A stretch of 64,000 nt of DNA, taken from positions 53,501 through 117,500 of the forward strand of contig CAJHZI010000491.1 of the NCBI GenBank assembly GCA_905160935.1, written 5' to 3'. The notes under the pieces were generated by a model that was not told the origin of the DNA, did no database searches, and saw only the letters and a program-made list of their open reading frames with translations. This stretch comes from Enchytraeus crypticus. Its lineage: Eukaryota; Annelida; Clitellata; Enchytraeida; Enchytraeidae. Of the stretch, positions 25,410-63,409 are shown in pieces. How positions within the stretch are numbered: the first letter of the stretch is position 1; the number at the start of each line of letters is the position of its first letter. A program made the position numbers and the translations under genes.

Positions 25410-25475
25410 ATAATAATAAAGGTTTAACGTCGGTTTCCTTATACAAGGATGATGTCAGAGACGTCAATAAGAAAA
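25410..25475 (-). mobile_element. SINE 3' module with (ATT)n tail
   Basis: AATAATAATAAAGGTTTAAC then GTCGGTTTCCTTATACAAGG and GATGTCAGAGACGTC. Confidence 0.75.
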
Positions 25476-25499: not shown

Positions 25500-25855
25500 A
25501 ACACCAACAACCCCTCTGTATCGGATAAGATTAGCTGTGAGGATAGACAATACTATCTACACGCTGTAGTAGATAAAATTAGCTGTGATGATAGATAATA
25601 CTATCTACACGCTGTAGTAGATAAAATTAGCTGTGAGGATAGACAATACTATCTACACGCTGTAGTAGATAAAATTAGCTGTGAGGATAGACAATACTAT
25701 CTACACGCTGTAGTAGATAAAATTAGCTGTGAGGATAGACAATACTATCTACACGCTGTAGTAGATAAAATTAGCTGTGAGGATAGATAATACTATCTAT
25801 ACGTTGTAGTAGATAAGATTAGCTGTGAGGATAGATGGTACTTTCTATATTCATG
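25500..25855 (+). repeat. Minisatellite, 48-bp period, about seven copies
   Basis: AGATAAAATTAGCTGTGAGG and ATAGACAATACTATCTACAC units; AGATAAAATT starts at 25571 and 25619. Confidence 0.95.
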
Positions 25856-33038: not shown

Positions 33039-33142
33039 CTAGGTAGGCCTTGAGATGACGTCACGCTTAACGACCCACTCGGCTCTGGGATTGATGTGAT
33101 ACAGCGATAGCATGTTCGCTCCGGAGTCGAGCCTTCTCTCCC
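33039..33142 (-). CDS. ARHGAP18: RhoGAP terminal exon 16
   Basis: GERRLDSGANMLSLYHINPR then AEWVVKRDVISRPT and TAG at 33039-33041; matches the extreme C-terminus of ARHGAP18 (LYQLNPNAEWVIK). Confidence 0.95.
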
Positions 33143-36100
33143 CTGCATTGAAATTAAATAATCAATCAGGCAAATAAATTAATCAAAGGAATAAGCAATG
33201 CAAACATTAATCAGTTAATCACATCAATCAATGAAATCAGTAAAACCAATTAGTCATTAATTTAAATAAAGCAATCAATTCAATTACTCGACCACTAACC
33301 ATATAATCCATCAGCTTTCAAATCAAACAATCACATTAATTCGCAGCTCAAGTGCAAAGAACTCTGCCATTCAAGAGCTGAGCTATTAAAATAAAAAATT
33401 CATGCAGTTTGGTCTTCATTCTAGTATCCACGAAAGCTATCTCTTACAAGAACGCACACAACTTTAGGTGTATCCTATTTTCTGGTATCACAGATTCCAC
33501 ATTCTATAATTATGGCCATATTTACTAGTGAGATAATTCGTAGCTTAAATCTCAACAGTGGCGTAAACAACGGATTAGTCACAATTTGGTATTCTGTAAG
33601 CTTTAAATCATGGTTTAAAGTAAGGCGTAGATACGCCTCTATTTTCTGAGATTTACACCACGGAGTAACGTTATTTAAGACGTTTTGTTTACGAAACAAG
33701 CTGATTGGCCGATCAGCCTGAAGGAGGTCCAATCAGCTTGCTTCGAGCGCTGTCATTGGCTGAGCGCTGCAATTTTTAGCGGGTGGCCTTGAAGTAAATA
33801 ACAGCGCTACATTGCTAGTGAATACTGCTATTTCTGAATTGCAGTTTACTCACTGATCTGTGGTATAAGTTATCTGCGGATTTTGGCGAGTATAGTTACT
33901 ACCGGTATAAGTTCTACAAAAATGTCGATACCTATATTTCCTCCTATTTCATACAAATGAATTCCACCGGCTGATTCACTGGCCGTGTGTGCTAGACTGC
34001 CGGTGCTGCCGCCGCTGCCAGAATTCATATACGCGCTGCCATCTCGTGAATGAATCGAATATTTCCCTGTATTTTCCAAATCTTCGCCAGTAGCTAAACT
34101 GACGCTACTGCCATTCAATGCCGCTGATGCAGAGAGAGCCGAGTTAGCTGAAGTATTCAGCTGATCACCGGTAGTATCTCTGTCAAATACAAAATACAGA
34201 CATAAGCTATATAGCTGGATTGAGTGACTTGTACCTGACATAATTGTTCAGGAATTTTAATTCTTACATCTTGTTATATTTTAAGCAGTAAAGCTTGTAA
34301 TAAGTGCTGTATTGCACGCTGTTTGATTTATAGGAAGAAAATTTTCAATTATAGCGATGCCTTGATAGATTGCATTGTATTAAGCTTTGAGCACTAAACA
34401 TTTCACGGCCCATATAAGGCATCGTATGAGTCGAGTACGCAAAAAAGGAAGAGAATTGAGAAATCCCCTTAGAAGGCACGTCAATAGTCTCTCTCTCTCT
34501 CTCTTAGTTCACTGCATACTGGCAGGTCCATGATATATAAAACGCCTCCACTCATTTCTATCTTCTGCTTTCCTCTCTATGACCACATACGAGTGGATAT
34601 TTAAGTCATCTAACATTCCTTTTGTTATGCCATTATTCTTGGAAGGTCTCGAATGCCTCGAGGACCCTATTTTATGGGCCCATATGCCTTCCCCAGCTTC
34701 GATTAACATTTACAGGGTGCTAATACATTACATTACAATAGTCATTAATTGATAGAAATATCTACATGTATATTTTCTCTTATTTCACAAATACCTACGT
34801 AAGCTAGTATTTCCTCACATTAGATTGTAAAATAAGGAAGAGAGTCTAAGCGATACCTAAGGCTATCAGAGCCCTGATTTCCTCACATCAGGTTGTTACT
34901 GAGAAAGAGAGCCTAGGCGATACCTAAGGCTATCAGCGCCCTGATTTCCTCACATCAGGTTGTTGAATAAGAAGGAGAGTTTAGGCGATACCTAAGGATA
35001 TCAGAGCCCTGATTTCCTCACACCAGGTTGTTTAATAAGAAAGAGAGTATAGGAGATATCTAAGGCTATCAGAGCCCTAATTTCCTCACATCAGGTTGTT
35101 TAATAAGGTAGAGAGTTTAGGCGATACCTAAGGATATCAGAGCCCTGATTTCCTCACACCAGGTTGTTTAATAAGAAAGAGAGCCTAGGAGATAACTAAG
35201 GCTATCAGAGCCATAATTTCCTCACATCAGGTTGTTTAATAAGGTAGAGTCTAGGCGGTACCTAAGGCTATCAGAACCCTGAGGTGGCTCCACAAATCTC
35301 GCTAGCACATCTCCTGCTGTAAGATTGTCGTCGAGTTGTAAGGTCGTGTTGAACTTGGATAGCTGGGGTGCCGTGATCCTTATCATACCGGCCGTAGAGG
35401 TGAAGCTAGACACAGGAGCTTGTGCTGTCTGTAAGCATTGCACAGGCAGGCTTAATCAGTATGAGGTAGAGTAACTGTACGCCTTACAGTACAGCAGTAC
35501 AGTAGCACAGTAGCACAGTAGTACAGTAGTACAGTAGTACAGCAGTACAGTAGTACAGCAGTACAGCAGTACAGTAGTACAGCAGTACAGTAGTACAGCA
35601 GTACAGTAGTACAGTAGTACAGCAGTACAGCAGTACAGCAGTACAGCAGTACAGTAGTACAGTAGTACAGTAGTACAGCAGTACAGCAGTACAGCAGTAC
35701 AGTAGTACAGCAGTACAGCAGTACAGTAGTACAGTAGTACAGTAGTACAGCAGTACAGTAGTACAGCAGTACAGCAGTTAATATAGAGCTACTAAAAGCC
35801 ATTTATTTCCTAAATCTGAAAGAAAGGATCATTCAATCTTGTATAAATTTACAGGTGGCTAATTTGTCCAATGCAACAAGAATTCACAAGGCTAATTTGT
35901 TCAATAAATACAAAAATAATTCACATAAGTTCACTGACCTCTGCAGGTTTTGTTGAAGAATGTCGACCATTGCTGGAAGTTGTTGATTTCACTGACATGC
36001 CAAGAAATCGAGCCAGCTAGAATAAATAATAGTACAACATCTTAATTCAACTTACAATCGTGCGAGCTAGAACTAGTATTACAACATCTTAATTTAGTTG

Positions 36101-39100
36101 CGTAGAAAATATTAAGTTGAAAGTATTTTTTAAATATATGGCACTGATGAAAATATCATTCAAACATGTTTTGTTGTTAAGGTAGAAATTTGTGCTAATA
36201 AATTGAGGTTCTAAGCGAAAGCAAACGACTTTAGGCGCTAGGCAATGGCTCGATAAAACGATATTATTGCGAATTTCACGCGCTAGTCTGAAAACAAGAA
36301 TACTTTGACTACTTTGGACTGAATTTCTGGATTTTAGAATTTGCACCGTTTTTGGAACTTCTTTTTTTGCTCGCCGGCTTGATTTTGTCTCAATAGTGCT
36401 CGATGTTATCATTGATGACTGTAGCACTCTAATTGTTGTTATTATTGTTATTAGTCATAAATCCACAGTATACAAAAATAGACGTGCAGATGAACGGTTG
36501 AAGTTAAGGGAAATTAGAGTGAGCTAACTATCAATTTGACTATATCTATCAATTTTAATTTTAACATCCGTATTGACTCCGAATAGGGATATAGGCCTAC
36601 AGCATGCTAAATGGAAGAAGTATTTTAGATTTAAATTTACAGGGTGAGTAAAAAAAATGATAACACCTGCAAAAAGTTTGAATATCTCAGGCTATTGTTA
36701 TTATTTTCAAATAAAACTTTTACCAATTACTAAAGGACTAATTTCTGATGGGCTGGCCAATTGTTATCCATTTTGGTTCATAGATTGGCTAGTTATGCAA
36801 GTTTCAGCAGAGCAACCCCCCACTTTTACCTAAAAATGGCGTTTGCTACAACGGATAGGGCAGATTGCACTTCATTGACGAGAAGGTAAAGGTGAACTCT
36901 CAGTATTACGTCAACACTTTGCTTCCGGAACAGTTTGATGATTGCTATGCTCTTCTACCAAATGGTTTCATCTTTCAACAGAATGGTGCTCCGGCTCATG
37001 CATCTCGTCGTGCACAGGAATGGATCAGCGAGGGAAACTCGGATTTCATCGAGAAGAATGAATGGCCTCCAAACTCACCCGATCATAATCCTCTGGATTA
37101 CCATATCTGGGGAACCATGTTGCATCTCTATCAGAAACACCAGCCGAAGCATAAAAACAAGCCAGAACTGCAGGAGGTGCTTTACGCCATTTTTAGGTAA
37201 AAATGGGGGGTTGCTCTGCTGAAACTTGCATAACTAGCCAATCTATGTACCAAAATGGCTGACAGTTGGTCAGCCCATCAGAAAGTAGTCCCTTAGTAAT
37301 TCGTAAAAGTTTTATTTGAAAATATTAACAATAGCCTGAGATATTCAAACGTTTTGCAAGTGTTATCTTTTTTTTACTCACCCTGTATATATTTTACCTT
37401 TAGATTTATATACTGAAATGATTTGGCTACTTAAGTATTTCATCTATATATCGATCTCTATAGAACAGAGACTTTACTCCTGATCTATTCACTTGGGATT
37501 TAACAAAATAACATATTGCTAGATCTCATTCTCTGACACATAAAACAACGACCTGACCTCTCAGTACTTTAACAAACTAAACTGTCTCTATTTAGAGGCA
37601 GAGATTAACTTATTACTTTTATAATAATTACAGCAGAGATTCGTTTATTACTTGAAATCTGACATACCGCAGAAAACGTACAAACATACATGGAACAAAA
37701 AGCAAATAGAAAGTTCAATAATACCTAGATACCAAGAGTCAAGATAACGTTTCATAAAAGTCATTATACGATATCCTAATGATAAAATCTTAACACGAAG
37801 GGAGTGCGCTTAAGTGATATTTAAACTGGATGAACCCTCCCACTGAGCTTAAAATATCATAAATAAATCTTGCGTATATTTCAAAACAATCTAACAACCG
37901 CAGATAGGTTTCAATTCCAACATATATTATACAAGCAATCACAAAGAAATGAAGCAAACTTACCGCTCTGGCTTTTCTAGGTCGTTTTTCACTGTTTTGA
38001 TAGAGACCTCGTATTCTGAACAGCAGCAGCTCTGGTACCTACAACGTACACCATATCTACGAGGTAATTCAACAACTGAACTGTTAGATCCTCCATGCAC
38101 TGCAGCAAAACTACTAAGTAGTACTGTAATGTAATTGCTCGCACAGCAATTACGGGTGGATAACAAAGCTTATTATGATACTAAAATAGGTGATATTCCA
38201 AAATATTGCTTATTTATATTCATTATCAGCACCATATCATCATAAGATACCAGAAGCTTATTATCACAAGATTAGTAACTTATCACCACAAGATCCTATC
38301 AGTATCTTATCACACAATCATTCTCACATCATTAGGCAGACGTTCATTTTCTTACACAGCACCCACAGTCTGGAACTCATTACCTGCTAATATTCACTAT
38401 TGTTGGGCTCTTTCAACTTTCTCTAGTCAGCTTAAGACTTACCTTTTCCCACCGTAGACATAATCAATCTACCCTGACCATTTTTAATCACCGGACTGGC
38501 TTTCGTTTAGGACCTTACTTCACCTAGCACATTTATTTTGCAGATTGGTCTAGGTGAATTGATCAGTAGTGAGGTGTGCTGTGGGGATGTCCCTGACATC
38601 ATCCCTGGATGAGGAAACGGACGTTAGACCTTCAATATTATTATAACTATAACATCACACACAGACTCACCGCCCACAGAACTCTCTGATATTTGATAAT
38701 GAGCAGAACAACATTGGACGTCCTGGCTGCCACGCCTATCTCTACCTCTCTATCTACAGTGCTGCCACTGCGTGCTGGTCTCACGCAGAAGAGATTGGGC
38801 GCCATGATCATGGCAACGCTCTTCAGCGTCATCTTGTTGCTCTCGTTTGAGATAACTTGTTGCAGAAAGTTTAATATCAACTGTAAGATCAATCAACTGC
38901 AGCATCAATCGATCGATCGATTAATTATAGTATGATTATAATCTATCAACTAATCTTCTAAAAGCAATTAATTTGACATCGCCAAAGGCTGGAGCCAGTG
39001 GCGAGGTCGGTAAGATATTCGACCGCGGATCAGTACGTACAGGGTTCAAATCCTGGGCTCGCCCGTCACTGACATCACCTTCGAGTGAGGAAACTGATGC

Positions 39101-40127
39101 TAACATATGCCTTACCAGTTTTAATTATAATTATGAAATATTCAAACAGATAATTTATAGATTAGTCCTTTAAAACAGCTGTGGCCATTACATTACAATT
39201 ACATTACAATTATTACATTATAATTCCAGTAATTATTAATTAAATTAATTATTATTTAAATTAATTATTAATAAAATTAATTATTAATTAAATTAATTAT
39301 TAAAAAAATTAATTATTAATTAAATTAATTATTAATTATATTAATTAATTATATTAATTATAAATTAAATTAAATTAATTATTAATTCTTATTAAATTAA
39401 TGTAATTATATTAAGTTATTACATTACAATTATATCACAGGCTACTAGGCTATCCCCACTTCATTCAGTGCAAGCTGATGTTAGCCTAGAGAATTATGAA
39501 GATTTTTACCTCGAGAGTGTTTCTGTTAACAGGTGGCAGCAGCAGCATGAGTAGATTAAGAGCTTCCAACTTCTGTCGCAGCTCCTGCAGCTCTGGCAGT
39601 CAAATAATCTCAAAAATTATATCAAATAATCTCAAATAATCTCAAATTATATCAAATAATCTCAAATTATATCAAAGGAAATTAAATGATATCAGATTAT
39701 ACATACTTCGGAAAGATTATAAAGAAGTCGGTAAGATACTCGACCGCAGATCAGTATGTGCGGGGTTCAAATCCTGGGCTCGCCCGTCACTGACATTGCT
39801 TTCGAGTGAGGAAACTGACATTTACCTTAGCTTTACCAGCTTTTTTATATTAAATTAAATCAGATTATATCAAATTATGTCAAAGTTAATTAAATTATAT
39901 CAGATTATATCAAATTATATTAAATTATTCTAAATTATAGCAGGCTGCGCACTAAGAGAAAGAGAGAGAGAGAGAGAGAAGGAGAGAGAAAAATATGTGT
40001 TATTTGTGACATTCACTGTTATACAGAAAATGATCTAAATTGCCTAACAGTTTAGACAAGTGGTCTTAAAAGTGATAGATATCAACATAGTTGACCATTT
40101 CACTATAATTGCATGTTTACTGTTTAC

Positions 40128-40177
<50 letters not shown>

Positions 40178-40573
40178 AGAGAGGAGTGGAGAGAAGAGAG
40201 GAGAGTGGGAAGAGAGACTAACTATCGACTTGGAGGAAGGCCTCGAGGTACTCGGCTGTCAGTAGGGGAGCGGGCAGGTCTCGCAGCAGCTGTTTGAGCA
40301 GCCCAGCAGCGTCATGAGCGCTGATATCATCCAGCCTAAGCTCTCTGCCTCTCCTGTAGGCTGCGTCCAGTTCATGCTGCAGTGTCTGCCATACATCAAT
40401 ACATCAGCCAGTAAATATATCAAACGACAATCAATCAATCAATCAAAATATCAATCATTCAATATATCTCTCTCTCTCTTTATGCACTGCCTACTGGCAG
40501 GTCCATGGTATATAACGCCCCTTCTCATCTCTATCTTCCATCTTTCTCTTCATGTCCACATACGAGTAGATCA

Positions 40574-40653
<80 letters not shown>

Positions 40654-43600
40654 AATATATATATATATATTTATATTAATAAATCAATCAATCGATTAAT
40701 CGCTAAAACAATTAATTAAATAGATCACTCAAACAAACAAGTGCTAAGCACAATATAAGCCATATTCGGAGACTTAGCGTCTTAGGAGACCCCGTAATTC
40801 AAGAGCAGCCAATGAAAAACCACCTCAGAGGCCGTAGGAAGCCATAGGCTTCGGAAGGTAAAGCTTATGTTATAGTTTGGCAATGTAATGCCTCTGAGAC
40901 ATGACCAACCATATGCTTCTTTTGGTAATTTTGGCTGCAGCCCGTGGCGAAAAATTGGTAAGATACTCGACCACGGATTAGTATATGCGGGGATCAAATC
41001 CTGGACTCGCTCGTCACTGACATCGCTTTCGAGTGAGGAAATTGACGTTAACATTAGCTTTTGATTAAATCAGACTATATGAATAAGAATAAAACTGAAT
41101 ACAGATTAAGCGTCTCTTATTTCACAGAGTATTTTAGAAAAGGAGTAGAGAGAGAAAGCGAAAGAGAGAGAAAGAACAAGAACAAGAGCAAGAGTAAGAA
41201 AGATCAGTTCAAGGAACCTTCATCCTGGTAACAGATCCAGGCACCCTGAGCAATCCCTCTTCATCCAGGCCTGTCGACTCCAGGTGCTTTACCAGCTGAA
41301 CCAATCAAAACAAAGAACACAAGTGAAATTTAAAATAAAGTAAAGGTCCTGCTGACCTAAACATTGTAGAAATTTACAGTTCTTTTAGTTTTTTATAAGT
41401 CAATGTTATTAAAACATAAACTTTAAATCAAACTAATACAGGTAATTGTTTGCCCTAATTAAATCTATATTTTTCGACGTAAGCACATCACAACTCGTAG
41501 CCTGCAGCAAATAAGTAAAAGGTAAACACACATTATAGTGAAATGATCAACTATGTTGATATCTATCACGAGGGTTCAATTCACCTCAGGGTCTGTCACT
41601 TAAAACTTCATGACGTTACCCCTACTCTAGTAAGACATTCTATTATTCATTAGATATAAGCAGAAGATCGTCAAAACCTCCCAGAAGATGAGTGGAAGCC
41701 GCAGATGTGGAAACTTCTTCTGGTCATTCTCGAGCAATGTTTGTAGCGGTACGCCAAATAAACCAGAATCTAAATGACATCGTAAATACACAACATATCA
41801 ACCAATACATACTTACAAGTACCATATTCTACATGATGTTCTGAAATTTGAAAGAACCGTTATAAAGAAAAATAGAAATGAAATGAATAATAAAGATTTA
41901 TTGTCTGGTTTTGCATCAAAATACTATCAGGAATTACCAAAGTACTGGAGATTAAAAAATACTTTAGAAATTACAAGTTGATATATAAATTCAGACAATC
42001 TGTTCAAAGCTGGCCCAATTTTTGGTTAAAAATTGCATCATTCAATCTGAAAATTCTCAACCATTAAAGCTTCAGTCAGACAGTAACAGAAATTGATTCA
42101 TATTACGTAACATAGTGACTGTAAACCTGAGTTTCTAGATCTGCCGGGTTTCCCCGCGTAGTATATCAACAGCAAACCTGAGATTCTAGATCTGCTGGGG
42201 TTTCCCCGCGTAGTATATCAACAGCAAACCTGAGATTCTAGATCTGCTGGGTTTTCCCCGCGTCAGCGTCAAGCCGTGATAGTCGTAGAAGGACGTGAGC
42301 TCGATGAGAGCGAGAGTTCTGATCTTCTTCAGATCCTCCGCGCCCAGGTCAGTGGAGTACGTTATACCGTGACTTCCAGGACTCAGCATCAAGTCCTGCA
42401 GCAAGTAATAAAATACATAAATAACGATAAAATAATAAAATAAATAAATAACGGTAAAATAATTAAATAACGATAAAATACTAAAATAAATAAATAACGA
42501 TAAAATAAAAAATTAAGTAACGATAAAATGGTAAAATAAATAAATAACGATAAAATAATAAAATAAATAAATAACAATAAAAATAATAAATAAATAACAA
42601 TAAAATAATAAAATAAGAAAATAACAATAGAATGGTAAAATAAATAAAGATAAAATAATAAATAAATAACGATAAAATAATAAAATAAATAAATAATGAT
42701 AAAATAATAAAATAAATAAGAAATTTTTAAATTTTTATACCCTCCAACAGATGAACTCTAAGGTACTCGGTTTAGAACTAATTTTGTAATAACTTATTAT
42801 TACCAACTGACCGACCGACTGACTGATAGTCGTAGAACGACGTGAGCTCCATGAGAGCTAGGGTCCTGATCTTCTTCAGATCCTCCGCGCCCAGATCAGT
42901 GGAGTATGTTATCCTGTAACTTAATCTACCTATCTATCTTAACCTACCTAACGTTAGATTAGATACAAGCTTTATTGCTGACATAATTATCTAATGACAA
43001 CAGCAAACACCGTAGAAGTATTTAAAGACTGCGGAATAGGCTGCACAATATTGAATATCAACAAAGACCTATCAGTGGCAACGCGAAAACCACAGACTTA
43101 AAAATAATCACTTAATCACTCCTGTTTTCAAACACCGATAAACAAGAAGAAACAACAACTAACAGGAAGCGAGTTGCTGTCTGGCTCTGAGCCAGGAACA
43201 GTAATCAGCTGATCACTAAATCGCTGACTCATCGCTACACTGGCGCCCCCCATCAGAGTGGCTGCCCTACCCCCACGTGACTCTCTCCCACCCACCTCAC
43301 CAACAGTAGATCTGAACTTTAACGCCTCTACTCCCCCCGTCCTGCCTCGCATGCTGTCTACCGCAGTGCCTGAGTAAAAAAATAGAAGTAAACATGCATT
43401 GCAATGAAATGATCAACTATGTTGATATCTATCACTTTTTAACACCACATGTTTAAATCGTTAGGCAAATAAGTCCATTTTCCGTGTAACCAGTCCAGTG
43501 AATGTCCGAAATTTACTCTCAGATCAGCGCAGCTGGAATCAAACCCACAAGAGTTCAATTCACCTCAGGACACGTCATTTAAAACTTCACAATGTTAGCC

Positions 43601-53171: not shown

Positions 53172-55771
53172 GTAACTATTCGCATAGAAGTTTTCCAAGT
53201 TGAATGTATTGTGTAATGTTTAGACGTGGGAGCTCTAACTATTTTTAACAGATATAACATCGGCGATAAGCTGTCGTGAGACGTGGGAGCTCTAACTATA
53301 TTTAACAGATATAACCTCGGCGGTAAGCTGTCGTGAGGTCATCGTCCTTTCCTATTCGATTTAGTCTCCATTAATTTCTCAGTTACTTTGAAACCTTCTG
53401 TCTCAGTTACCTAGTATCATGCTAATTACTAATAGTTGCTAATAATTAATAATGGTTTGTTAGATAGTTTGGCTAATCATACCAGTCCTAGACTTCGCTG
53501 CATTATTTATTTTTCCAGATTCCAGGATTTGAGTTGTGGATCTTCAGTGACGAATACAATGCAGATCTACTGGGCTATATAAATATTTTTCCTGTATGAA
53601 AGTCATATGACATTACTGAATTTGTTTGCTAAATGGCTAAAGACATGACTGATGCATCAAGAACTCAAAGTCTGCTGTCTCACTTCTTAAGAGCACTCTT
53701 TAGAAAAACAAGTTAATCCCTTCACAAAATCTATGCCTTATCCATACCTTATGTAGCCTATTGCTTGGGAAAAGTATGGCTTCTGAGGTAGTTTACCGTT
53801 GCCTTCCTCAGTTAGATGGATTAATTACCATTTAGTCCTGGAGAAAATATTTCATGGTGAGGTGGATCCCCTCTTTCCATCCTCAGCTCCTGCCTTTAGT
53901 TGCCTCTTACGTACACGTGGCGGATTGTTTGCAGTTGCCCTATTCTGCAGTGGTCCAACCACACCCGACCACAACACGGGGAACATATTGTTGTACTTAT
54001 TGTTTGTTTATTCAGATTCAGATACTCGTAAGTGATGTGAACGATCAAGCTCTGAACAGCTGGAGTGGAGATCAACAAAATCTGTCGCTGGTTTTTATCA
54101 ACAGTCTCGTTGTATCTCGTCAGCACTAATTCCATCTCTTCAGCATATATCTGATTCTAATTACTTACGATACTATTATATTTCCATTAAATGCGTCTAT
54201 GTTAGACGACTACATTTAATGAACCTGTTAATAATTTAGTGCTGAACGATAGTTTTATTTGATGTTTCATTGATTGTTTGATTGAATGATCCATTGATTG
54301 ATTAATATATTGATTTATTGATTGATTGGGTGTTCTATTGACTGATTTATTGAGTGATCAGTGGATTAATTTACTAATTGATCCATTAATTGATTGATCA
54401 ATTGATTGATTGATTTGCTGGATTAATTGATTGCTTGATTGAATGATTGATTGAATGATAAATTGATTGTTTGATTTGCTGGATTAATTGATTGCTTGAT
54501 TGAATGATTGATTGAATGATAAATTGATTGTTTGATTGATTGTTTGATTGATCAGTTGATTGACTGACTGATTGATTGATTGATTGATTCAGCTGATGAC
54601 TCGCCTTGCTGAACTGCCTCAGATAGTGAGAGACAAGGCAACGCTGGACGAGTGTAACTTGATGAGAGGAATAGCAAAAGGTGCAGAGATACTCACACAC
54701 ACGTCTAGTAAACAGAGAGAGCTAGCACTTGCAGGCACTAAGGTCATCAATAGAGGGCGCGTCGTAGTACTGTCTGCGTTCAATGGGTATGTGTGCCATC
54801 ACTAACCTGTAGATAGTCATCTCATTTCATATATGATTGGAAACCTTTACCAGAGAGAGAGAGAGATATGTGTTTATTTCAGCATCAACACCCAATCACT
54901 GACAATTACAAATAGAAGTAAACATTTAAATGAAATAAAGAAATTCCCAGAAACACTGGATAGCAAACCGTCTGTAAAAACTAGAACAATGGCTGTCAGG
55001 GAAGATGATACAAATCTTATCTAGCTGACCACCATCAAAATAAGCATCTTCAAGCCTTACTTGCTTGTTTGTTTGTCTGCATGAACGTTCTATAATTTGT
55101 ATAATCTGTGCTGAGATGAAAGATTAAACTGTTTGTAGTTTTGTAAGAATAACTGTTTGAAACGAAAGGAAAAGGAAAAAAGCCCTAACCCCATTGCTAA
55201 TATATAATACTCCTCAGTGACGGCAATCCTAGGATTTACCTGCGTTTGAATCTATTCAAGCGAAAAAACATTTTAAATTTAAAAAGAGTTACAATGGGAG
55301 CAGGTTGTGCAATTTTTCTTCATTATTCCACCTTTTACAGAGTTGCTAATGCAGCACTTTAAGTAATTAATAGGACTGGCGCAATTTTGATTGGCTCCAG
55401 CCAGTTTTACTTTGCTCACACATTGCTGAATTGGATTACGTACACAGTATTGTGCTCTTTATTCTGTTTTTTTAAAAAAAAATTTAATAGGCCTGTCACT
55501 TTATTTCTATCCATAACACTACCAATGATAGGCATCTATCGAAATGCATTTGTATTGTACTAGCGAGCCGTCGATAAATCAGCTGGAGGAGAGGATGCAC
55601 AACGTGATTAGTCAGTGTAATCGTGAGGCAGCTATGGCGACCGATCTCTCGCTGATGCCCATCGACGAGTGTGACCTTGTTCTCGTGGATATAACAACAG
55701 TGGGGCTGCCAAACAACGTCTCCGTCAGACAGAGGAGACAGGTGTGTGGAGAATATCATACTTACTGTCTG

Positions 55772-55803
<32 letters not shown>

Positions 55804-58800
55804 GTGGACTGCGTACTAGCTGGTCCATGGTATCTCCTCTATGTAAATAAAAATTCATTATGTGTAATACTAATAAAAAAGGTTTAACGTCCGTTTCCTC
55901 ATCCAGGGATTATATCAGGGACGTCCCCACAGCACACATCAATACAAATCAATTCGCCCAAACCAATCTGCAAAAGAAATGTGCTGAGGAGAAGTATGGT
56001 ACACATAAGGAACGATGGGGAAGAAGAATTCTGAAGTTATATAGAATCTACTGTTGAACTCTAATATGAAATATTGATATTTGGTTACTTTAAAGTTATA
56101 CATGTAGAATTTACTGTTGCACTCCAGTTTGAAATATTGATCGTATTTTCCGCCTTGTAATGAATTCATATTGTGTAATGAAGTTTTATTTATTTGCAGT
56201 TTAACTCTGTAGAAAGCAAAATTCATAGCTAGGTCAATTTTGCTGTTCTTGCTTATGCCACATTGCAGTTATCTGTTCCACAAGCTTTTGTATTCTCCAG
56301 AAAAATATTTTGAAATATATGCTCCAATTCATGAAGTTTTAAATGACAGATCTCGAGGTGAATTGAACCCTCATGGGTTCGAATCGCAACCGCGCTGATC
56401 TGAGAGTAAAATCTCGGACATTCACTGGACTATTTGTATGGAAAAAGGTCTAAATTATCTAACTGTTTAAACATGTGATATTAAAAAGTGATATCAACAT
56501 AATTGATCATTTCACTATAATATGTGTTTACTTGTTTTTGTGTATGTATTACTAGTTCTGACGCCTTGATTTTTTGATGTTTTGGAGAACTGTGCAGGGT
56601 ATCTGATGTTGTGTGATGCTAATAAACTTTAAATCTGTTTTGATCGATTGTTTATTTCGTATATAATTAAATCCTCTGATAGGAAGGCTCAATATTGTAT
56701 ATCAGTTTGCACTCGTGCTAATTGTTTGATTTATTGATTGATCGCACAACCAATCAGCTGTCGCCGTTACTCTCCAGCGAGGTTCACGTCAGCCAATCAG
56801 GAAGCTTCGTTGCCATACAGCTTGTTGAGCTGGCCATCAAGCACTATCATCTCTCATCGACCACTGTCACTGGAATACCCATGAAGGTTCTCTGTGCTCT
56901 GCTAGTCATCTATGGGCTTTTATAAATTTTTTGTTTGGGCTGATTTTCTGGATTTTGGAATTTGCACCGTTTTTACGTAGGATCCAGTCATTCTATGACT
57001 TGTAATAGACACTTAAATGTTGATAATGAGATAGTCACAAGGTTAGCTACGTGACTAAGATCGTGACTTGTTAGTTAACTGTAACTGTGTGTCTCTTTCC
57101 TCGTATAAGTCTTGATTTTATTGATTTTTAGAGAACGTAGAGTAGGCTATTAGTCAAATGAATCTTGCACGTCACTTTTGTCAATTTTACTGTTGCTGTT
57201 AGCTTTTGGTGAAGTGGGGGTATTATTATATAATTTTTGTTGAGTTTATATATACTAATAATAATAATAAATTGTTTAATATATTCTTATTTCCTTTGTT
57301 TGCTCTTGTTGTATCATTTGTTGTTATAGCTGTTGCTGTTCTGCTTATTGTTGTTGTTGTTCTAGGAGGAACAGAACGCGAGTTCTTCGGCTAACTATGA
57401 CGTAGAATTGTTGCACCCTGCTGCGGCACATAATGATCTCTTCAAATCTGGTACGAATAAAAATTAATAAAAAGACATAATTTAAATAATATGAAAAGCA
57501 AATGTCACAGTTATAACAGCAACTATAATAATTAATTTATCATTTTAAATATTAATATACTAATTTATAGTTTTAGTTAAGTATATTATAATAGAAAATA
57601 TAATAATTTATAATTTTTAAAATTAATAAATAGTAATTTATTCTGTAGAAGTCGTGTTATACATTACTATTGATAAATCAACGCCCAGGTTCTGATGTTG
57701 TCTGTTGTGAATTGAAAGCATGTGTTATTGGGTTTATGTTGTTGTTGTTGTTGTGTTATTGTTGCAGGGCAACAGAGTGGATTGATGATGTGTTTGTGTA
57801 TTGTTTTATATATGTTGTTGTTGTTGTTGTAACAGGTCAACACAGTGGATTGATGATGCCCAGTAAGGAAGGTCTATACAGCCCAACAGTGACACTCAAA
57901 TGGTGCACACCCAAGTCGACAGCTGTGGGTGAGACAACAGTTTACTGCGTTGCTCGAGGAATTTGTGTTGTTGTAACATCTTTTATAATTTGTTATAATT
58001 TAAACTAGATACTCTAATGAAGATTATGCTAGTGTGAGCATTTGTGAAAATGTCCTTCAGCGAAGCTCATAGAAAAGTGCCACTGTTTAGCCTGTAGTGT
58101 TACTGAGCTTTAAATTTGCCAATATCGACGTCCCTGACATCATCCTTGTATGAGGTAATGGACGTTAAGCCATTATTAATGTTATTATTATATCTGAACT
58201 CGTCATATCTGTATTAGCTGAAAGAGAACAATGGTAGATTGATTGATTGATTGTGTAGGTTCAGAGCTGGTTCTGATCATTTTTATTGGTTTGATTGATT
58301 GGCTGATTGGTTTGAATTTTGTCATTGATTGATTAATAGATGATTGATTGATTAATAGATGATTGATGGATTGATTGTTAACAGAACTACATCCCTGCAC
58401 TTCAGCCTATCGTGTCACGCCTGTAGATGTCATCAGTCGTCCTTCCTCTTGTCTCACCAACTTCCTTCTCAACGGTATCTCTCCCTCTTTTCTCTGACTT
58501 GTTCCTCCCACGGAAGATCTATTTTTCTGACATATTTTATGAGTTGGTTGATGATGATGCTTGTATGTATGTGTGTATATCTGTGTGTATATATCGTGCC
58601 TTTGTACCTATGTTTAGGAAAGGCAATTGATTGAGTAATCACATAAATTCAACCATATCTCGCATGTTTCTCTGTGTATGTCTGTGTGTATGTATGGTTG
58701 TATGTGTAGGTAGATCAGTTATGTTAGAGCAACCACGTAAGAACTCAACTAAGCTTATATCTCACATGTTTCTCTGTGTATGTCTATATGTATGTGTGCG

Positions 58801-59457
58801 TGTATGTGTAGGTAGATCAGTTATGTTAGAGCAACCACGTAAGAACTCAACTAAGCTTATATCTCACATGTTTCTCTATGTATGTCTATATGTATGTGTG
58901 CCTGTATGTGTAGGTAGATCAGTAATGTTAGAGCAACTACGTAAGAACTCCACCAAGCTCATATCCCGCATGTTTCTCTGTGTATGTCTATATGTATGTG
59001 GGATTGTATGTGTAGGTAGATCAGTTATGTTAGAGCAACCCCGTAAGAACTCGACCAAGCTCATATCTCACATGTTTCTCTGTGTATGTCTATATGTATG
59101 TGGGATTGTATGTGTAGGTAGATCAGTTATGTTAGAGCAACCCCGTAAGAACTCGACCAAGCTCATATCTCACATGTTTCTCTGTGTATGTCTATATGTA
59201 TGTGGGATTGTATGTGTAGGTAGATCAGTTATGTTAGAGCAACCCCGTAAGAACTCGACCAAGCTCATATCTCACATGTTGACGAGCCACGCGGGAGAGA
59301 TCTATCTGCACGTGCTGGCTACAGCCAGATCTATTCTAGAGGATGTTCCGTCAATAAGTGAGGGTGTGGGGGGCAGGGTGACAGACTATAGGATTCCCGT
59401 ATGTGTATATCTCTCTCTCTACCTCTCTATATATCTATCTATTTATCTCTCTACCTA

Positions 59458-59511
<54 letters not shown>

Positions 59512-62500
59512 TGCTATATTTAAAGTATATATCTCGGTCAAAGTGGGTATCTAGTAGTGAAGTTATCTCTGATTTTTTTTGTCTTTGCTGTCTTTAAACT
59601 TTGACTTGCATATTTGTATTCAATCAATCAATAAGAATTAACGTTCGGTTCCTCGCCTTATGTACATGTGCCTCGTATTGGTATGATGACACAGTTGGTA
59701 GCGCAATGACTTGATAAACAGGTTGTCGCAGATTTGAAATCCTGCAGGTCTCTCTCCATCATCGTCTGCTTCGTGAGCTCTAAACTTGACTGTTCTATAT
59801 TGCTTTTATTATTTTATTTCTTTCTCTTGTATTTGCCGTGTAGGAGTTTGCTGAGCTGATCAAAGCTAACAAGTTGGCGCCTGTTCCACCAGAGGTCTCT
59901 GATAAAGATCATCATCTACCAATAGAAAGAGGTCAGTGTGTGTGTGTGTGTGTGCGTATGTGTGTGTGTATTCGTATGCCTTTTGCAGCTATGTGTGTAG
60001 AGCTTGCCTATATATAGTTATAATAATGTGTGTCTTGACTATTACATGCGTGTCTTGCCTATAATAGTTATAACAGTGTGGTCAGCTTTATGCGCTTCTG
60101 ACAACTCTTTCAGGTGAGGAACTGACATCAAATCTTATTTGCATTGGTAAGGCTAATGTTAACGTCAGTTTTCTCACTCGAAAGCGATGTCAGTGACGGG
60201 CGAGCCCAGGATTTGAACACCGCATATACTGATCCGTGGTCGAGTGTCTGACCGACATCGCCACTGGTTTCAACCAGTGTCTGCAGATACTCTGTGCAGA
60301 TACTCGATGCAGATACTCGGTGCAGATACTCGGTGCAGATACTCGGACATGCCATGTGGCTTGACTCAGTATTTGACAAGATAGTATCAGACGGGTGCAG
60401 GTTCAAATCCTGGGCTCGCCCGTCACTGACATCGCTTTCGAGTGAGGAAACTGACGCTAACGTTAGCTTTACCAGCTTTACAGTTAAAATAAAAAATCAG
60501 ATTTTACAAGATAGTAGACTTCAACTGTAATTACAGTATTGAGTTGACTTCTTTGTTTTATCGAGACCACGGTGGTTGTTGTGTAAGAGATGTATTATTT
60601 TATGCTGTGATTTTATTAGCTTTGATATGAAATTGATTCTAATTGATTACAATTGATGCAATGATAGTCTTGCCTTTTATATAGCAATTATTAGTTTAGT
60701 AATTATATTATTATTATTATTTTTATCATCATCATCATCTTCCCTTAAATCCTAGTTTAATCAGGCTCGTCATACAACGAGACTTTCTCCAGTCCAGTCC
60801 TCATAAATTATTATTATTATTACTATTTTTATAAATTATTATTATTATTACTATTTTTATAAATTATTATTATTACTATTTTTATAAATTATTATTATTA
60901 CTATTTTTATAAATTATTATTATTATTACTATTCTTATAAATTATTATTATTATTACTATTTTTATAAATTATTCTTATTATTATTATTTTTATAAATTA
61001 TTATTATTATTACTATTTTTATAAATTATTATTATTATTATTTTTATAAGTATCTTAATTTTTATTTAACTAAAATTATTTTGTAACGTATGTAGCAAGA
61101 AATAGAATTGAGAGAATGACCAGAGTCTGTCCATTGACCATCAGCGATACCGTTCTCTTCAACCTCTCCTCTGTATGTATGCCTTGTTGTTGTTGTTGTT
61201 GTTGTTCGTCCTCTTAAATCTCTCCTCTGTATGTATGCCACGTTGTTGTTGTTGCTGCTATAATCGACAAATAATTGCGAATACAGATATATCAACAGTT
61301 CAAAGAGTGATCAACATATGTAGCAACAACAGAAAATAAAATTTGCTCGCTACGGCCATCAGAGAGGGCACTAAACTACCCTATCGAGCTGACCACCACA
61401 GTAAACAGTAGAGTACTGTACAGTTCAATTCAGTACAATACAATTCTGTACAGTGAAGCTTTAACATCAGGTTTTACATCTGAATGCTACGACTTGTTGC
61501 TGCTGTCTATCAACCGTTGACGTCCCTGACGTTGCCTTGTGGCGAGGCACCGGACTTTAAATTCTTATTGATATGATTGATTGATTGATGTATGAGCACT
61601 TTACTTGCTGTATGTCACGGAGTCTGGATTGATTGATTGATTGATTTTATTGATTGATTGATATGAGCGAGCACTTGTATGTCACAGAGTCTAGAGCCTC
61701 TGCCCTCTCTCATCATAAAGACTCAGCTGACTGATCCCGAGGTGCTTGAGTGCAAGAAGGTCATCTACCACTTGGTGGGTATGGAGAGTCGTAACGAGCC
61801 GACCTTGACCTCAGCACTGCGGAGCAAGGGCCCCATGAAGAGGTTAGTAGTGTGGTGTAATATCTAGTAGATGAAATAGAATTTAGGAAATTCTATACTA
61901 GCCAGAATTAACTTGCAATTTCTTTGAATGTTCATTTTAATATGTCGTTTAATAAACTTTATCGTAGTTGAATGGCAATTTAAATTTATTTATGCATTTT
62001 ATTTATTTTCCTCATTTTAATTTATTCATGTGATTTTTATGACTTTATCATCATCGTCTATTCATCACTACTGTGGCATTTACTGGCGACGTCCCTGACA
62101 TCATCCCTGGATAAGGAAACGGACGTTAAACCTTTATTATTATTATTATTATTATTATTATTTAGCATAAAGCGGCGCTGTCTTAAATTCACTTAGTGAC
62201 TGAAACTGATACGTGATATTTTCTACTTGAAGCTGCCTTTCTGATTGACTGAGTGAGTGAGTGAGTGATTAATTGATGATTTATGACTTGATGGCATTAT
62301 TAAATATGATCAGTCAAGTTGGTTGCAGAACAATGCAGCTGTTGCCTTTGACAGCTCTACCAATTGTTATCAAACGTTTTTTTGCTGTTAATTAGTTGAC
62401 TAATGAATTTGTTGATTGATTGATGTATTTATTTGATTGAATTTTAAACTGGTTGATTAATTAACGAATTGTTTTATCGATTTATAGAGTGATTAATAAA

Positions 62501-63409
62501 TTGATTGATTTATGAATTGAATGATTGATAGAGACGAGTTGTACAGACAGATGTGGGCAGAGTTTGAGCGGTACATACGAGCATACTCGCAGACATCCAC
62601 GCAGCATGGCAAAGTGCTCGACTGTCTGCTCGAGTGCAAGAAACCCAGCGGCTCCAGTTCAAATCTCAGCACAGACGAACCCATCCAGAACGTTATCAGT
62701 ATTAAAGAGGAGACCAACTCGGCTACTGATAGCCTGTGAGATTTTACTCTTCTTTTGTTCAGATAGAAGTAGTAAATATGATGTGTTTGATTCCATGCTG
62801 TTTGATCGACTTCTTGATGTACTGATTAACTAATTGATTGATTAGTATTTTAAACATATCTGTCGTGTTCAGATAATTGTTAATTGTTAACGGGTAATTG
62901 TAAAAAAGTTAATTGTAAATGGGATTTAACACTCATATTGAAATTTTAAATTATTTTCTTGAAATCTACAAACATTATACTTAATTTCAGCCGATCATTA
63001 GTTATACTATAGACGTTGTAGAATATATAAATAATGTAATAAATGTAATACACTATATGTGGTCAACTTTGAAGTTCAGTTTCCAAGACACTTTTAAACG
63101 GATGTCTGTGTTTATTGGATTGGCTCATAGTGATGTGTGCTGTGGGGACGTCAGTGACATCATCCTTTGATGAGGAAACAGACGTTATACCTTTATTATT
63201 GTTATTATTATTATAGATGTCTGTAGATGTTTTCATAATGTGTCGTGTTGTTTTTGTTGTATATTTTAAGTTTATCTTGTTGTTGTTGTTCTGTATTTTA
63301 AGTTTATCGAAGTTGGACAGTGACAGACCAGAGAGGGGAATGAAGAGAGAACTGGAAACAAGCCTTGAAGATCAGCCTGAGCTCAAGAAATTTAAATTCA
63401 ACGGCGCCG
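52950..63409 (+). CDS. INTS13: Integrator complex subunit 13 / asunder (3' partial gene, 14 exons)
   Basis: Nuclear subunit of Integrator, which cleaves snRNA and other short RNAs; the Drosophila orthologue asunder also affects dynein at the nuclear envelope. Exons: 52950-53171, 54016-54090, 54593-54786, 55564-55741, 56758-56886, 57366-57450, 57836-57928, 58385-58474, 59220-59398, 59844-59931, 61096-61172, 61688-61842, 62532-62735, 63321-63409. Phases agree (619 codons plus one base). Landmarks: ATG then [109 protein letters not shown]. The remaining C-terminus (human protein about 706 aa) lies past the window. The exon 9 acceptor is multiplied six-fold. Confidence 0.96.
53221..53337 (+). repeat. 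58-bp tandem duplication in INTS13 intron 1
   Basis: AGACGTGGGAGCTCTAACTA and TTTAACAGATATAAC recur; the second copy carries GGCG|GTAAGC, the first GGCGATAAGC. Confidence 0.93.
53870..53985 (-). mobile_element. Dispersed repeat G, diverged 5' part
   Basis: GCCTCTTACGTACACGTGGC ... ACCACAACACGGGGA. Confidence 0.65.
54016..54090 (+). CDS. INTS13: INTS13 exon 2
   Basis: [20 protein letters not shown] then QNLSL. Acceptor ttattcag|ATTCAG chosen because it aligns gaplessly with KLVNFIVSDSGAHVLNSW. Donor CTG|gttttt is weak but gives the right phase. Confidence 0.88.
54245..54590 (+). repeat. (TTGA)n-rich tract up to INTS13 exon 3
   Basis: Includes a tandem pair of about 65 bp (GCTGGATTAATTGATTGCTT at 54418 and 54479). 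Confidence 0.92.
54593..54786 (+). CDS. INTS13: INTS13 exon 3
   Basis: [20 protein letters not shown] at the start; ends [13 protein letters not shown]. Preceded by (TTGA)n right up to the acceptor. Confidence 0.93.
55564..55741 (+). CDS. INTS13: INTS13 exon 4
   Basis: [20 protein letters not shown], then a segment ending VSVRQRRQ; contains [10 protein letters not shown], matching IQKCELVLI. A (CT)n tract and LINE end follow 40 bp downstream. Confidence 0.93.
55770..55842 (-). mobile_element. LINE 3' tip with (CT)n
   Basis: (CT)n then GTAGTGGACTGCGTACTAGC and TGGTCCATGGTAT; within INTS13 intron 4. Confidence 0.7.
55868..55940 (-). mobile_element. SINE 3' module with (ATT)-like tail
   Basis: AATAAAAAAGGTTTAACGTC, CGTTTCCTCATCCAGGGATT, ATATCAGGGACGTCCCC. 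Confidence 0.76.
56335..56535 (+). mobile_element. tRNA-derived SINE, family D
   Basis: CATGGGTTCGAATCGCAACC (B box), GATCTGAGAGTAAAATCTCG, GTGATATCAACATAATTGAT. In INTS13 intron 4. Confidence 0.8.
56758..56886 (+). CDS. INTS13: INTS13 exon 5
   Basis: [20 protein letters not shown] then a segment ending [10 protein letters not shown]; 43 codons, phase 0 both sides. Confidence 0.95.
57366..57450 (+). CDS. INTS13: INTS13 exon 6
   Basis: [20 protein letters not shown] then AHNDLFKS; near-identical to [20 protein letters not shown]. Confidence 0.95.
57768..57790 (+). repeat. Mini-copy of INTS13 exon 7 acceptor edge
   Basis: GTTGCAG|GGCAACAGAGTGGATTGATG against AACAG|GTCAACACAGTGGATTGATG, linked by (GTT)n. 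Confidence 0.9.
57836..57928 (+). CDS. INTS13: INTS13 exon 7
   Basis: [20 protein letters not shown] then [12 protein letters not shown] 23-bp copy of its 5' edge, with a cag acceptor, sits at 57768-57790. Confidence 0.93.
58125..58192 (+). mobile_element. SINE 3' module with (ATT)n tail
   Basis: CGACGTCCCTGACATCATCC, TGTATGAGGTAATGGACGTT, then ATTATTAATGTTATTATTAT. Confidence 0.78.
58385..58474 (+). CDS. INTS13: INTS13 exon 8
   Basis: [20 protein letters not shown] then [10 protein letters not shown]; donor AACG|gtatct, phase 1. Confidence 0.95.
58649..59219 (+). repeat. INTS13: In-frame tandem array of INTS13 exon 9 acceptor plus first 20 codons (102-bp unit)
   Basis: Five full units start at 58710, 58812, 58914, 59016 and 59118, before the exon at 59220, all exactly 102 bp apart, with a partial unit at 58649. 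Each has TATGTGTAG|GTAGATCAG. The frame [20 protein letters not shown] plus 14 Cys/Val-rich residues ([14 protein letters not shown] in the last three) is open throughout. Confidence 0.96.
59220..59398 (+). CDS. INTS13: INTS13 exon 9 (basal form, last of six acceptors)
   Basis: [20 protein letters not shown] then [20 protein letters not shown] and an end at [10 protein letters not shown]. Start is set by homology. Five further acceptors at 58710, 58812, 58914, 59016 and 59118 would give longer in-frame forms. Confidence 0.94.
59465..59512 (+). repeat. (TC)n microsatellite
   Basis: CT tract in INTS13 intron 9. Confidence 0.96.
59622..59668 (-). mobile_element. SINE 3' module with TTGA-type tail
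   Basis: CAATCAATCAATAAGAATTA then ACGTTCGGTTCCTCGCC. Confidence 0.72.
59844..59931 (+). CDS. INTS13: INTS13 exon 10
   Basis: [20 protein letters not shown] then KDHHLPIER; matches FGEFMRENRLTPFLDP. Confidence 0.92.
60146..60277 (-). mobile_element. tRNA-derived SINE, family A
   Basis: AGGCTAATGTTAACGTCAGT ... GGATTTGAACACCGC ... CGACATCGCCACTGG. Confidence 0.86.
60391..60480 (+). mobile_element. tRNA-derived SINE, family A, 5' truncated
   Basis: GCAGGTTCAAATCCTGGGCT to GAAACTGACGCTAACGTTAG. Inverted relative to the copy at 60146, 110 bp away. Confidence 0.85.
60725..60800 (-). mobile_element. Dispersed repeat G, 3' part
   Basis: (ATC)n, CTTAAATCCTAGTTTAATCA, GGCTCGTCATACAACGAGAC; followed by an ATT-rich minisatellite. 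Confidence 0.68.
60800..61060 (+). repeat. ATTATTACTATTTTTATAA minisatellite
   Basis: About ten 23-29 bp units, ending about 35 bp before INTS13 exon 11. Confidence 0.94.
61096..61172 (+). CDS. INTS13: INTS13 exon 11
   Basis: [20 protein letters not shown] then LFNLSS; matches AKDQLEKHTRYWPMIISQTT. Its donor region is copied at 61219-61239. Confidence 0.9.
61219..61239 (+). repeat. Copy of INTS13 exon 11 donor edge
   Basis: CTCTCCTCTGTATGTATGCC recurs 56 bp after the original (61163), with (GTT)n between. Confidence 0.9.
61515..61592 (+). mobile_element. SINE 3' module with TTGA-type tail
   Basis: TTGACGTCCCTGACGTTGCC, TTGTGGCGAGGCACCGGACT, then TTATTGATATGATTGATTGA. Confidence 0.8.
61590..61628 (+). 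repeat. Copy of INTS13 exon 12 acceptor edge
   Basis: TGAGCACTTTACTTGCTGTA and TGTCACGGAGTCTGG parallel GAGCACTTGTATGTCACAG|AGTCTAG, linked by TTGA repeats. Confidence 0.85.
61688..61842 (+). CDS. INTS13: INTS13 exon 12
   Basis: [20 protein letters not shown] then [18 protein letters not shown]; matches SLTEEDVLNCQKTIYNLVDM. A copy of the acceptor edge lies about 60-70 bp upstream. Confidence 0.94.
62090..62163 (+). mobile_element. SINE 3' module with (ATT)n tail
   Basis: GCGACGTCCCTGACATCATC, CCTGGATAAGGAAACGGACG, TTAAACCTTTATTATTATTA. Confidence 0.82.
62532..62735 (+). CDS. INTS13: INTS13 exon 13
   Basis: [20 protein letters not shown] at the start, then [14 protein letters not shown] and an acidic/Ser linker ending SATDSL. 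The human counterpart reads DEQYRIMWNELE. Confidence 0.94.
63135..63215 (+). mobile_element. SINE 3' module with (ATT)n tail
   Basis: GTGCTGTGGGGACGTCAGTG, ACATCATCCTTTGATGAGGA, then GTTATACCTTTATTATTG. Confidence 0.8.
63321..63409 (+). CDS. INTS13: INTS13 exon 14 (last in window)
   Basis: [20 protein letters not shown] then LKKFKFNGA. Acceptor gttggacag|TGACAG is required by phase 2; donor GCCG|gtaagc leads beyond the window. Confidence 0.87.

What the first reader, a model, noticed from the sequence alone, without database searches (positions are those of the whole stretch)
58649..59398. INTS13 exon 9: six identical acceptors in a 102-bp, in-frame, open array
The exon's acceptor and first 20 codons are repeated five more times upstream with an exact 102-bp (34-codon) period, and the span 58710-59398 has no stop. 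Joining exon 8 (phase 1) to any acceptor stays in frame, so one locus could encode INTS13 with 0 to 5 inserted 34-residue repeats, each carrying a hydrophobic Cys/Val-rich stretch made from what is otherwise intron. The last three units are the same, which suggests recent homogenisation. Preservation of frame and acceptor in all units is striking for intronic DNA, but copies are young enough that chance cannot be excluded.
Basis: partly seen in the sequence, partly recalled or inferred. Interest (0 to 1): 0.9.

Follow-up and report, generated by a model that had tools for sequence, protein, structure and literature searches.

The report
Minisatellite straddling an INTS13 splice junction
A short stretch covering the end of an intron and the start of an exon of the animal gene INTS13 has been copied six times in a row, leaving six look-alike splice sites; it is real, but it looks like one of several chance duplications of splice junctions in this repeat-rich stretch rather than a device for making longer proteins.

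Summary
INTS13 exon 9 (59220-59398) is preceded by five further copies of its acceptor and first 61 nt, each followed by 41 nt of intron; period exactly 102 bp, exon starts 58710, 58812, 58914, 59016, 59118, 59220. Joining exon 8 to any of the six stays open, 625 to 795 residues. A decayed older copy lies upstream, with 8 nt of gaps and a stop. Seven of 44 junctions tested in two genes carry a local junction-spanning copy, plus one microsatellite case; only this one is in frame and open, about what chance gives. Lack of stops is unremarkable (P 0.55). Exon-derived codons vary mostly synonymously (7:2), intron-derived ones only non-synonymously (0:5), as if constraint comes from the real exon. 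None of 184 relatives has a second copy. The six acceptors score alike, so in-frame alternative splicing is plausible but untested. Best reading: a minisatellite across a splice junction. A functional isoform ladder is not excluded but lacks evidence.

The parts
58385..58474 (+). INTS13 exon 8, ends phase 1 (..CTTCTCAACG|gtatct)
   Evidence: gene model
58475..59219 (+). INTS13 intron 8 if the last acceptor is used; contains the array
58610..58709 (+). decayed unit 0: 3' part (58654-58709) clear, 5' part (58610-58653) weak, 8 nt of gaps; weak acceptor before 58618 leads to a stop
   Evidence: (p 0.0005 for the exon part, 0.013 for its first 46 nt against unit 1, 0.57 against unit 3)
58710..58811 (+). 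unit 1: acceptor before 58710, 61 nt exon copy + 41 nt intron copy
58812..58913 (+). unit 2, exon part identical to unit 1
58914..59015 (+). unit 3, P to L and H to R changes in the exon part; intron part as in units 4, 5
59016..59117 (+). unit 4
59118..59219 (+). unit 5, identical to unit 4
59220..59398 (+). INTS13 exon 9 proper; its first 61 nt are unit 6 (identical to units 4 and 5)
57746..57790 (+). comparator: junction-spanning copy of the exon 7 acceptor (exon start 57768; real 57836; spacing 68; stop at residue 316)
61207..61251 (+). comparator: junction-spanning copy of the exon 11 donor (copy ends 61228; real 61172; spacing 56; stop at residue 485)
61609..61628 (+). comparator: decayed copy of the exon 12 acceptor (AG lost), spacing 67; copied exon part only 8 nt, so not seen by the exon-only test
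   Evidence: p 0.003; p 0.83
63251..63276 (+). comparator: copy of the exon 14 acceptor (exon start 63271; real 63303; spacing 32; stop at residue 600); copied exon part only 6 nt, so not seen by the exon-only test
   Evidence: p 0.003; p 0.78; TRF 32 bp
42123..42263 (-). comparator: 52-bp array, exon end plus donor CTCAG|GTTT at 0, +52 and +103 nt from the real exon end 42230 of an ARHGAP18/28-like gene; both further donors lead to a stop
34809..35282 (-). comparator: 68-bp x 7 array of the donor CCTTAG|GTACCG of another exon of the same gene (real exon end 35262); six copies 66 to 405 nt on, four with AG|GT intact; reading on meets a stop for all six

Best explanation
This is a minisatellite that happens to straddle the intron 8 / exon 9 junction of INTS13 in an unidentified animal whose DNA here is rich in tandem repeats. 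A tandem duplication copied 41 nt of intron end with its acceptor and 61 nt of exon start; unequal exchange or gene conversion then expanded the copies and keeps the exon-side units identical, while the far end decays (shown: the anatomy, the decayed unit and the gradient of divergence; inferred: the exchange). Normal INTS13 needs the last acceptor (59220), because relatives read across this junction without an insert. The upstream acceptors are about as good by score, so some in-frame longer products may well be made (inferred, untested). Frame and openness were not selected as a protein module: they are about what chance gives, and the constraint visible in the exon-derived parts is most simply borrowed from the real exon.
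For: Array anatomy. Decayed unit 0. 19.4% of the window lies in tandem arrays; of 40 TRF rows with period 25 or more (some rows overlap), 14 have a period divisible by 3 and 10 have no indels. Junction-spanning local copies at 7 of 44 junctions of two genes, not counting one microsatellite case; only the exon 9 copies are in frame and open, the copies at exon 7, 11 and 14 and in both ARHGAP arrays lead to stops, and the exon 12 copy has lost its AG. P(no stop given 14 events) 0.55; intronic 42-mers open 40%. Synonymous:non-synonymous 7:2 in exon-derived against 0:5 in intron-derived codons, one-sided Fisher p 0.010, or 0.045 if three clustered intron changes count as one (0:3). 0 of 184 relatives carry a second copy of the exon start; 0 of 120 have any insertion in the surrounding 68 residues, all aligned in full.
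Against: The 7:2 synonymous bias in the exon-derived parts is too strong for neutral drift of all copies (p 0.0009); it fits copying from the real exon but would also fit some translation of the copies. Synonymous sites differ more than intron sites (7 of about 14 against 5 of 41, p 0.007), which a simple clock does not explain. The decayed unit matches unit 1 but not unit 3 in its first 46 nt. No RNA, population or same-species data were available.
Confidence: 0.74

Rival explanations
1. A functional ladder of acceptors: alternative splicing inserts 0 to 5 hydrophobic 34-residue repeats in INTS13, and frame, acceptors and exon codons are kept by selection for these isoforms.
For: All six joins are open; acceptor scores 3.8-5.6 are like the real one at 4.5; exon-derived codons change 7 synonymous to 2 non-synonymous; in a model of a 54%-identical relative the insertion point falls in a loop between helix 349-356 and strand 361-364, block pLDDT 69-72.
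Against: Intron-derived residues vary freely, R/P/I, V/G, C/Y; oldest unit decayed; 0 of 184 relatives have a second copy; repeated membrane-like hydrophobic stretches are unlikely in a subunit of a nuclear complex (general knowledge); the six other junction duplications are out of frame, closed by stops or decayed.
Confidence: 0.1
2. Self-correcting array: each unit carries AG|GT and may act as acceptor and donor, so a join to an upstream acceptor is respliced in steps of 102 nt until the last unit, as in the dual-specific splice-site arrays of UBC and VCX3A. This would explain why an array in a conserved gene is tolerated.
For: Every unit has TAG|GTAGAT; all three multi-copy junction arrays found carry AG|GT against 13 of 44 junctions overall (hypergeometric p 0.022, post hoc); published precedent and the proposal that such expansions are less harmful because they can be spliced out (PMC10809524: abstract, passages, sections 8 and 9 seen).
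Against: As a donor AG|GTAGAT scores 1.7, below the 22 donors scored (2.6 to 9.9), and ranks 63-68 of 108 GT sites in 58475-59399. The paper says such sites tend to be weak, so this is not decisive.
Confidence: 0.09
3. Assembly artefact or collapsed or expanded repeat: the true unit number differs or the array is not real.
For: Identical units 4 and 5 are the kind of sequence that short reads misassemble (general knowledge).
Against: Units 1 to 3 differ from unit 5 at 7, 8 and 6 sites; total length about 627 bp; similar arrays elsewhere in the window. Reads were not available.
Confidence: 0.05

Closest known systems
Tandem arrays of dual-specific splice sites in human UBC and VCX3A (Duan et al. 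2024, PMC10809524; abstract, passages and sections 8 and 9 seen)
   Same: tandem units each with an AG|GT splice motif; in UBC as here the unit length is divisible by 3, so any choice of site keeps the frame
   Different: UBC units are wholly coding and each makes a ubiquitin; here each unit is 60% exon start and 40% intron, and the AG|GT is a poor donor by local scoring; no RNA evidence
Intron gain by tandem genomic duplication (potato RdRp case, PMC4974935, seen only as a search listing with the start of its abstract; the AGGT model is otherwise recalled)
   Same: tandem duplication across a splice motif
   Different: here an existing intron-exon junction was multiplied; no new intron is shown
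Other junction-spanning duplications in this window (exons 7, 11, 12, 14 of INTS13; two donor arrays in an ARHGAP18/28-like gene)
   Same: local tandem copies spanning a junction, same sequence background
   Different: not both in frame and open, or splice site decayed

Membership tests
INTS13 (Integrator subunit 13 / Asunder, PF10221) | sequence homology over the conserved region | tested here: met
   PDB human INTS13 E = 9e-168 over residues 3-560; PF10221
Tandem repeat (minisatellite) | head-to-tail copies of one unit | tested here: met
   TRF period 102, 6.1 copies
Dual-specific splice-site tandem array | AG|GT core in every unit | tested here: met
Dual-specific splice-site tandem array | each site is used both as 5' and as 3' splice site in RNA | not testable with these tools
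   no RNA data; donor score 1.7, lower than the 22 donors scored in the two genes
Functional alternative-acceptor ladder | coding constraint over the whole inserted peptide | tested here: not met
   intron-derived codons 0 synonymous, 5 non-synonymous; small numbers
Functional alternative-acceptor ladder | isoforms present in RNA or protein | not testable with these tools
   no same-species sequence among the hits (best identity 54% among 120 listed of 1031; at most 80% over 26% of the query among 64)
Functional alternative-acceptor ladder | insert or second exon copy found in relatives | tested here: not met
   0 of 184; relatives are distant

The most novel reading that the evidence does not exclude
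A six-rung, in-frame ladder of equal splice acceptors that grows and shrinks by unequal exchange, so that a single locus makes INTS13 with 0 to 5 extra 34-residue hydrophobic repeats, or is kept harmless by stepwise resplicing at AG|GT in every unit.
Probability: 0.14. Interest if true: 0.8.

Novelty: new member of a known kind. Interest (0 to 1): 0.36.

Why it matters
Six nearly identical acceptors at fixed spacing in one intron are a natural experiment on how the spliceosome chooses among equal 3' splice sites, and on how genomes tolerate repeat expansion across splice junctions. The two genes examined suggest that junction duplications may be frequent in this genome, which would make the question testable genome-wide.

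Tried and rejected
Stop depletion: rejected as evidence (P of no stop 0.55). Indel depletion: rejected (10 of 40 TRF rows with period 25 or more have no indels). Frame selection across junction duplicates: rejected (only exon 9 of seven is in frame and open). A first reading that the 68-bp ARHGAP array is simply out of frame was wrong: its six copies lie 66, 134, 202, 270, 338 and 405 nt on, three of them multiples of 3, but a stop closes all. Dual-specific resplicing: kept as a rival, weakened by donor scores. Acceptor scores do not single out the real site: the best-scoring AG in intron 8 is another one 9 nt inside each exon copy (6.6 in units 1, 2, 4 and 5, 6.0 in unit 3), so the matrix, from few sites, is a rough guide. 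Enrichment of duplications at junctions over intronic positions: 8 of 44 against 87 of 1000, p 0.04 (the eight include the exon 3 microsatellite, and the control hits cluster in 26 bins of 300 nt); an earlier control on INTS13 alone gave 19 of 400 intronic and 0 of 400 exon-interior positions. I make no strong claim from this. The exon-only test of INTS13 found only exons 7, 9 and 11 at its lowest p (0.005); exons 12 and 14 appear only in the junction-spanning test. Weak matches left out because they do not span the junction: exon 8 acceptor p 0.035 and exon 12 donor p 0.015, exon 8 acceptor and exon 10 donor p 0.017. The exon 3 acceptor match (p 0.003) is an ATTG microsatellite and was left out of the seven. 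The decayed unit's first 46 nt match unit 1 (p 0.013) but not unit 3 (p 0.57); it was not used in the codon counts. The repeat ORF also gave a sub-threshold Pfam match to MFS_MOT1 (27.2 bits, cut-off 30), put down to its hydrophobic repeats. Literature: searches listed no paper on an INTS13 acceptor array; apart from PMC10809524 (outline, abstract, passages, sections 8 and 9) I saw only listings with starts of abstracts. Pfam scans of 32.7-37.7, 40-45 and 45-50 kb in six frames found only the ARHGAP-like gene; the rest of the window was not scanned in this way. The organism was not identified.

Full report
What is there. INTS13 lies on the + strand from 52950 to beyond 63409 in 14 recognisable exons; the translated model (625 residues) matches human INTS13 in the PDB with E = 9e-168 over residues 3-560. 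Exon 8 ends at 58474 in phase 1, exon 9 is 59220-59398. Upstream of exon 9 its acceptor and first 61 nt are repeated five more times with a period of exactly 102 bp. Every one of the six joins from exon 8 is open and in frame, giving 625 to 795 residues.

The older end. Unit 0 (58610-58709) is a decayed copy. Its intron half is clear (in the TRF array from 58654). Its exon half aligns to unit 1 with 8 nt of gaps; p 0.0005 for the exon part including the 15 nt already in the array, 0.013 for the first 46 nt alone, and not significant against unit 3 (0.57). Its acceptor before 58618 scores -0.5 against 3.8 to 5.6 for the intact ones, and joining exon 8 to it gives a stop at residue 361. Measured against unit 5, divergence runs from decayed (unit 0) through 7 and 8 differences (units 1, 2) and 6 (unit 3) to none (unit 4, and the exon part of unit 6).

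Is the frame special? Period divisible by 3 has a prior of one third, and 14 of 40 TRF rows with period 25 or more in this window meet it; 10 of 40 have no indels (some rows overlap). Intronic 42-mers of this gene (intron 8 left out) are open in a given frame 40% of the time, and 11 of 36 frames of the 3' ends of the other introns are open. With 14 substitution events and 4.2% of changes making a stop, no stop is expected 55% of the time.

Other junctions. I tested 26 junctions of INTS13 and 18 of an ARHGAP18/28-like gene on the minus strand (identity) for local copies that span the junction. Seven carry one at the smallest p obtainable (0.003): exon 7, 9, 12 and 14 acceptors and exon 11 donor of INTS13, and two donors of the ARHGAP-like gene, which lie in arrays of period 52 (three donors) and 68 (seven). 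An eighth (exon 3 acceptor) is only an ATTG microsatellite. For exons 12 and 14 the copied exon part is short (8 and 6 nt) and the exon-only test does not see it. Spacings are 68, 67, 32 and 56 at exons 7, 12, 14 and 11, 52 and 103 in the first ARHGAP array, and 66 to 405 in the second, three of six copies at multiples of 3. Using the copies at exons 7, 14 and 11 gives stops at residues 316, 600 and 485 of 625, and both ARHGAP arrays are closed by stops; the exon 12 copy has lost its AG. With 7 duplications, a prior of 1/3 and 0.40 openness, about 0.9 in-frame open cases are expected (my arithmetic); one is seen. Junctions are hit somewhat more often than random intronic positions (8 of 44 against 87 of 1000, p 0.04), which I regard as weak. 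Some ARHGAP exon ends rest on splice signals and phase, not on homology; the 52-bp case is supported by a protein alignment across the joint that is gapless for two of the four relatives shown and has one 1-residue gap for the other two.

Coding signal. Among units 1-6 the exon-derived codons differ by 7 synonymous and 2 non-synonymous events (p 0.0009 against 23% synonymous expected), while the intron-derived codons of units 1-5 differ by 0 synonymous and 5 non-synonymous (one-sided Fisher p 0.010, or 0.045 for 0:3, if the clustered changes count as one). Constraint thus follows the exon boundary. The simplest cause is that copies are made from, or converted by, the real exon; a translated repeat module should be constrained throughout. 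The numbers are small, and the excess of synonymous over intronic change (p 0.007) remains unexplained.

Relatives. All 120 best-listed INTS13 homologs align over the 68 residues around the junction with no insertion; of 184 homologs from two searches none has a second copy of the exon start (best chance score 35 against 100 for a true copy). About nine of the 64 partial proteins begin exon 9 at the same residue after intron-like sequence, by eye, so the intron position appears old. No sequence of this species was found (best identity 54% among the 120 listed of 1031). A model of relative P0001 (mean pLDDT 67) puts the insertion point in a loop between a helix (349-356) and a strand (361-364) at block pLDDT 69-72, so structure alone does not forbid an insert.

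How it likely works. By score the six acceptors are about equal, and the matrix does not single out the real one, so the sequence does not say which is used. From recalled work on duplicated splice sites (no call), the site nearest the donor can win, and then inserts would be common; this is the main open point. Published arrays of AG|GT sites in UBC show that tandem splice sites can be used stochastically, and the authors propose that extra units are tolerated because they can be spliced out (PMC10809524). Here the AG|GT is a poor donor (1.7 against 2.6-9.9), so I do not file the array under that family.

Verdict. A real, well-described minisatellite across a splice junction, one of several such duplications in the window, with possible but unproven alternative splicing.

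Noticed in passing
window 33066-45838, minus strand: An ARHGAP18/28-like RhoGAP gene with two arrays of duplicated donor sites (period 52 at 42123-42263; period 68 at 34809-35282).
   Followed up: partly
window 42817-42912, minus strand: A second, truncated copy of the ARHGAP exon at 42230-42395 (ITYSTDLGAEDLKKIRTLA..), about 540 bp upstream in gene orientation; a decayed or alternative exon.
   Followed up: no
window 25524-25835: 48-bp array, 6.5 copies, 96% matches, period divisible by 3; by eye mostly open with stops in some units; not scanned for genes.
   Followed up: no
window, e.g. 58122-58170, 62080-62140, 63140-63180, 25420-25470: A short dispersed sequence (GACGTCCCTGACATCATCC..GAGGAAACGGACGTTAAACC) recurs on both strands, SINE-like by eye.
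   Followed up: no
window 53222-53337: A 57-bp duplication inside INTS13 intron 1, entirely intronic by the gene model.
   Followed up: no
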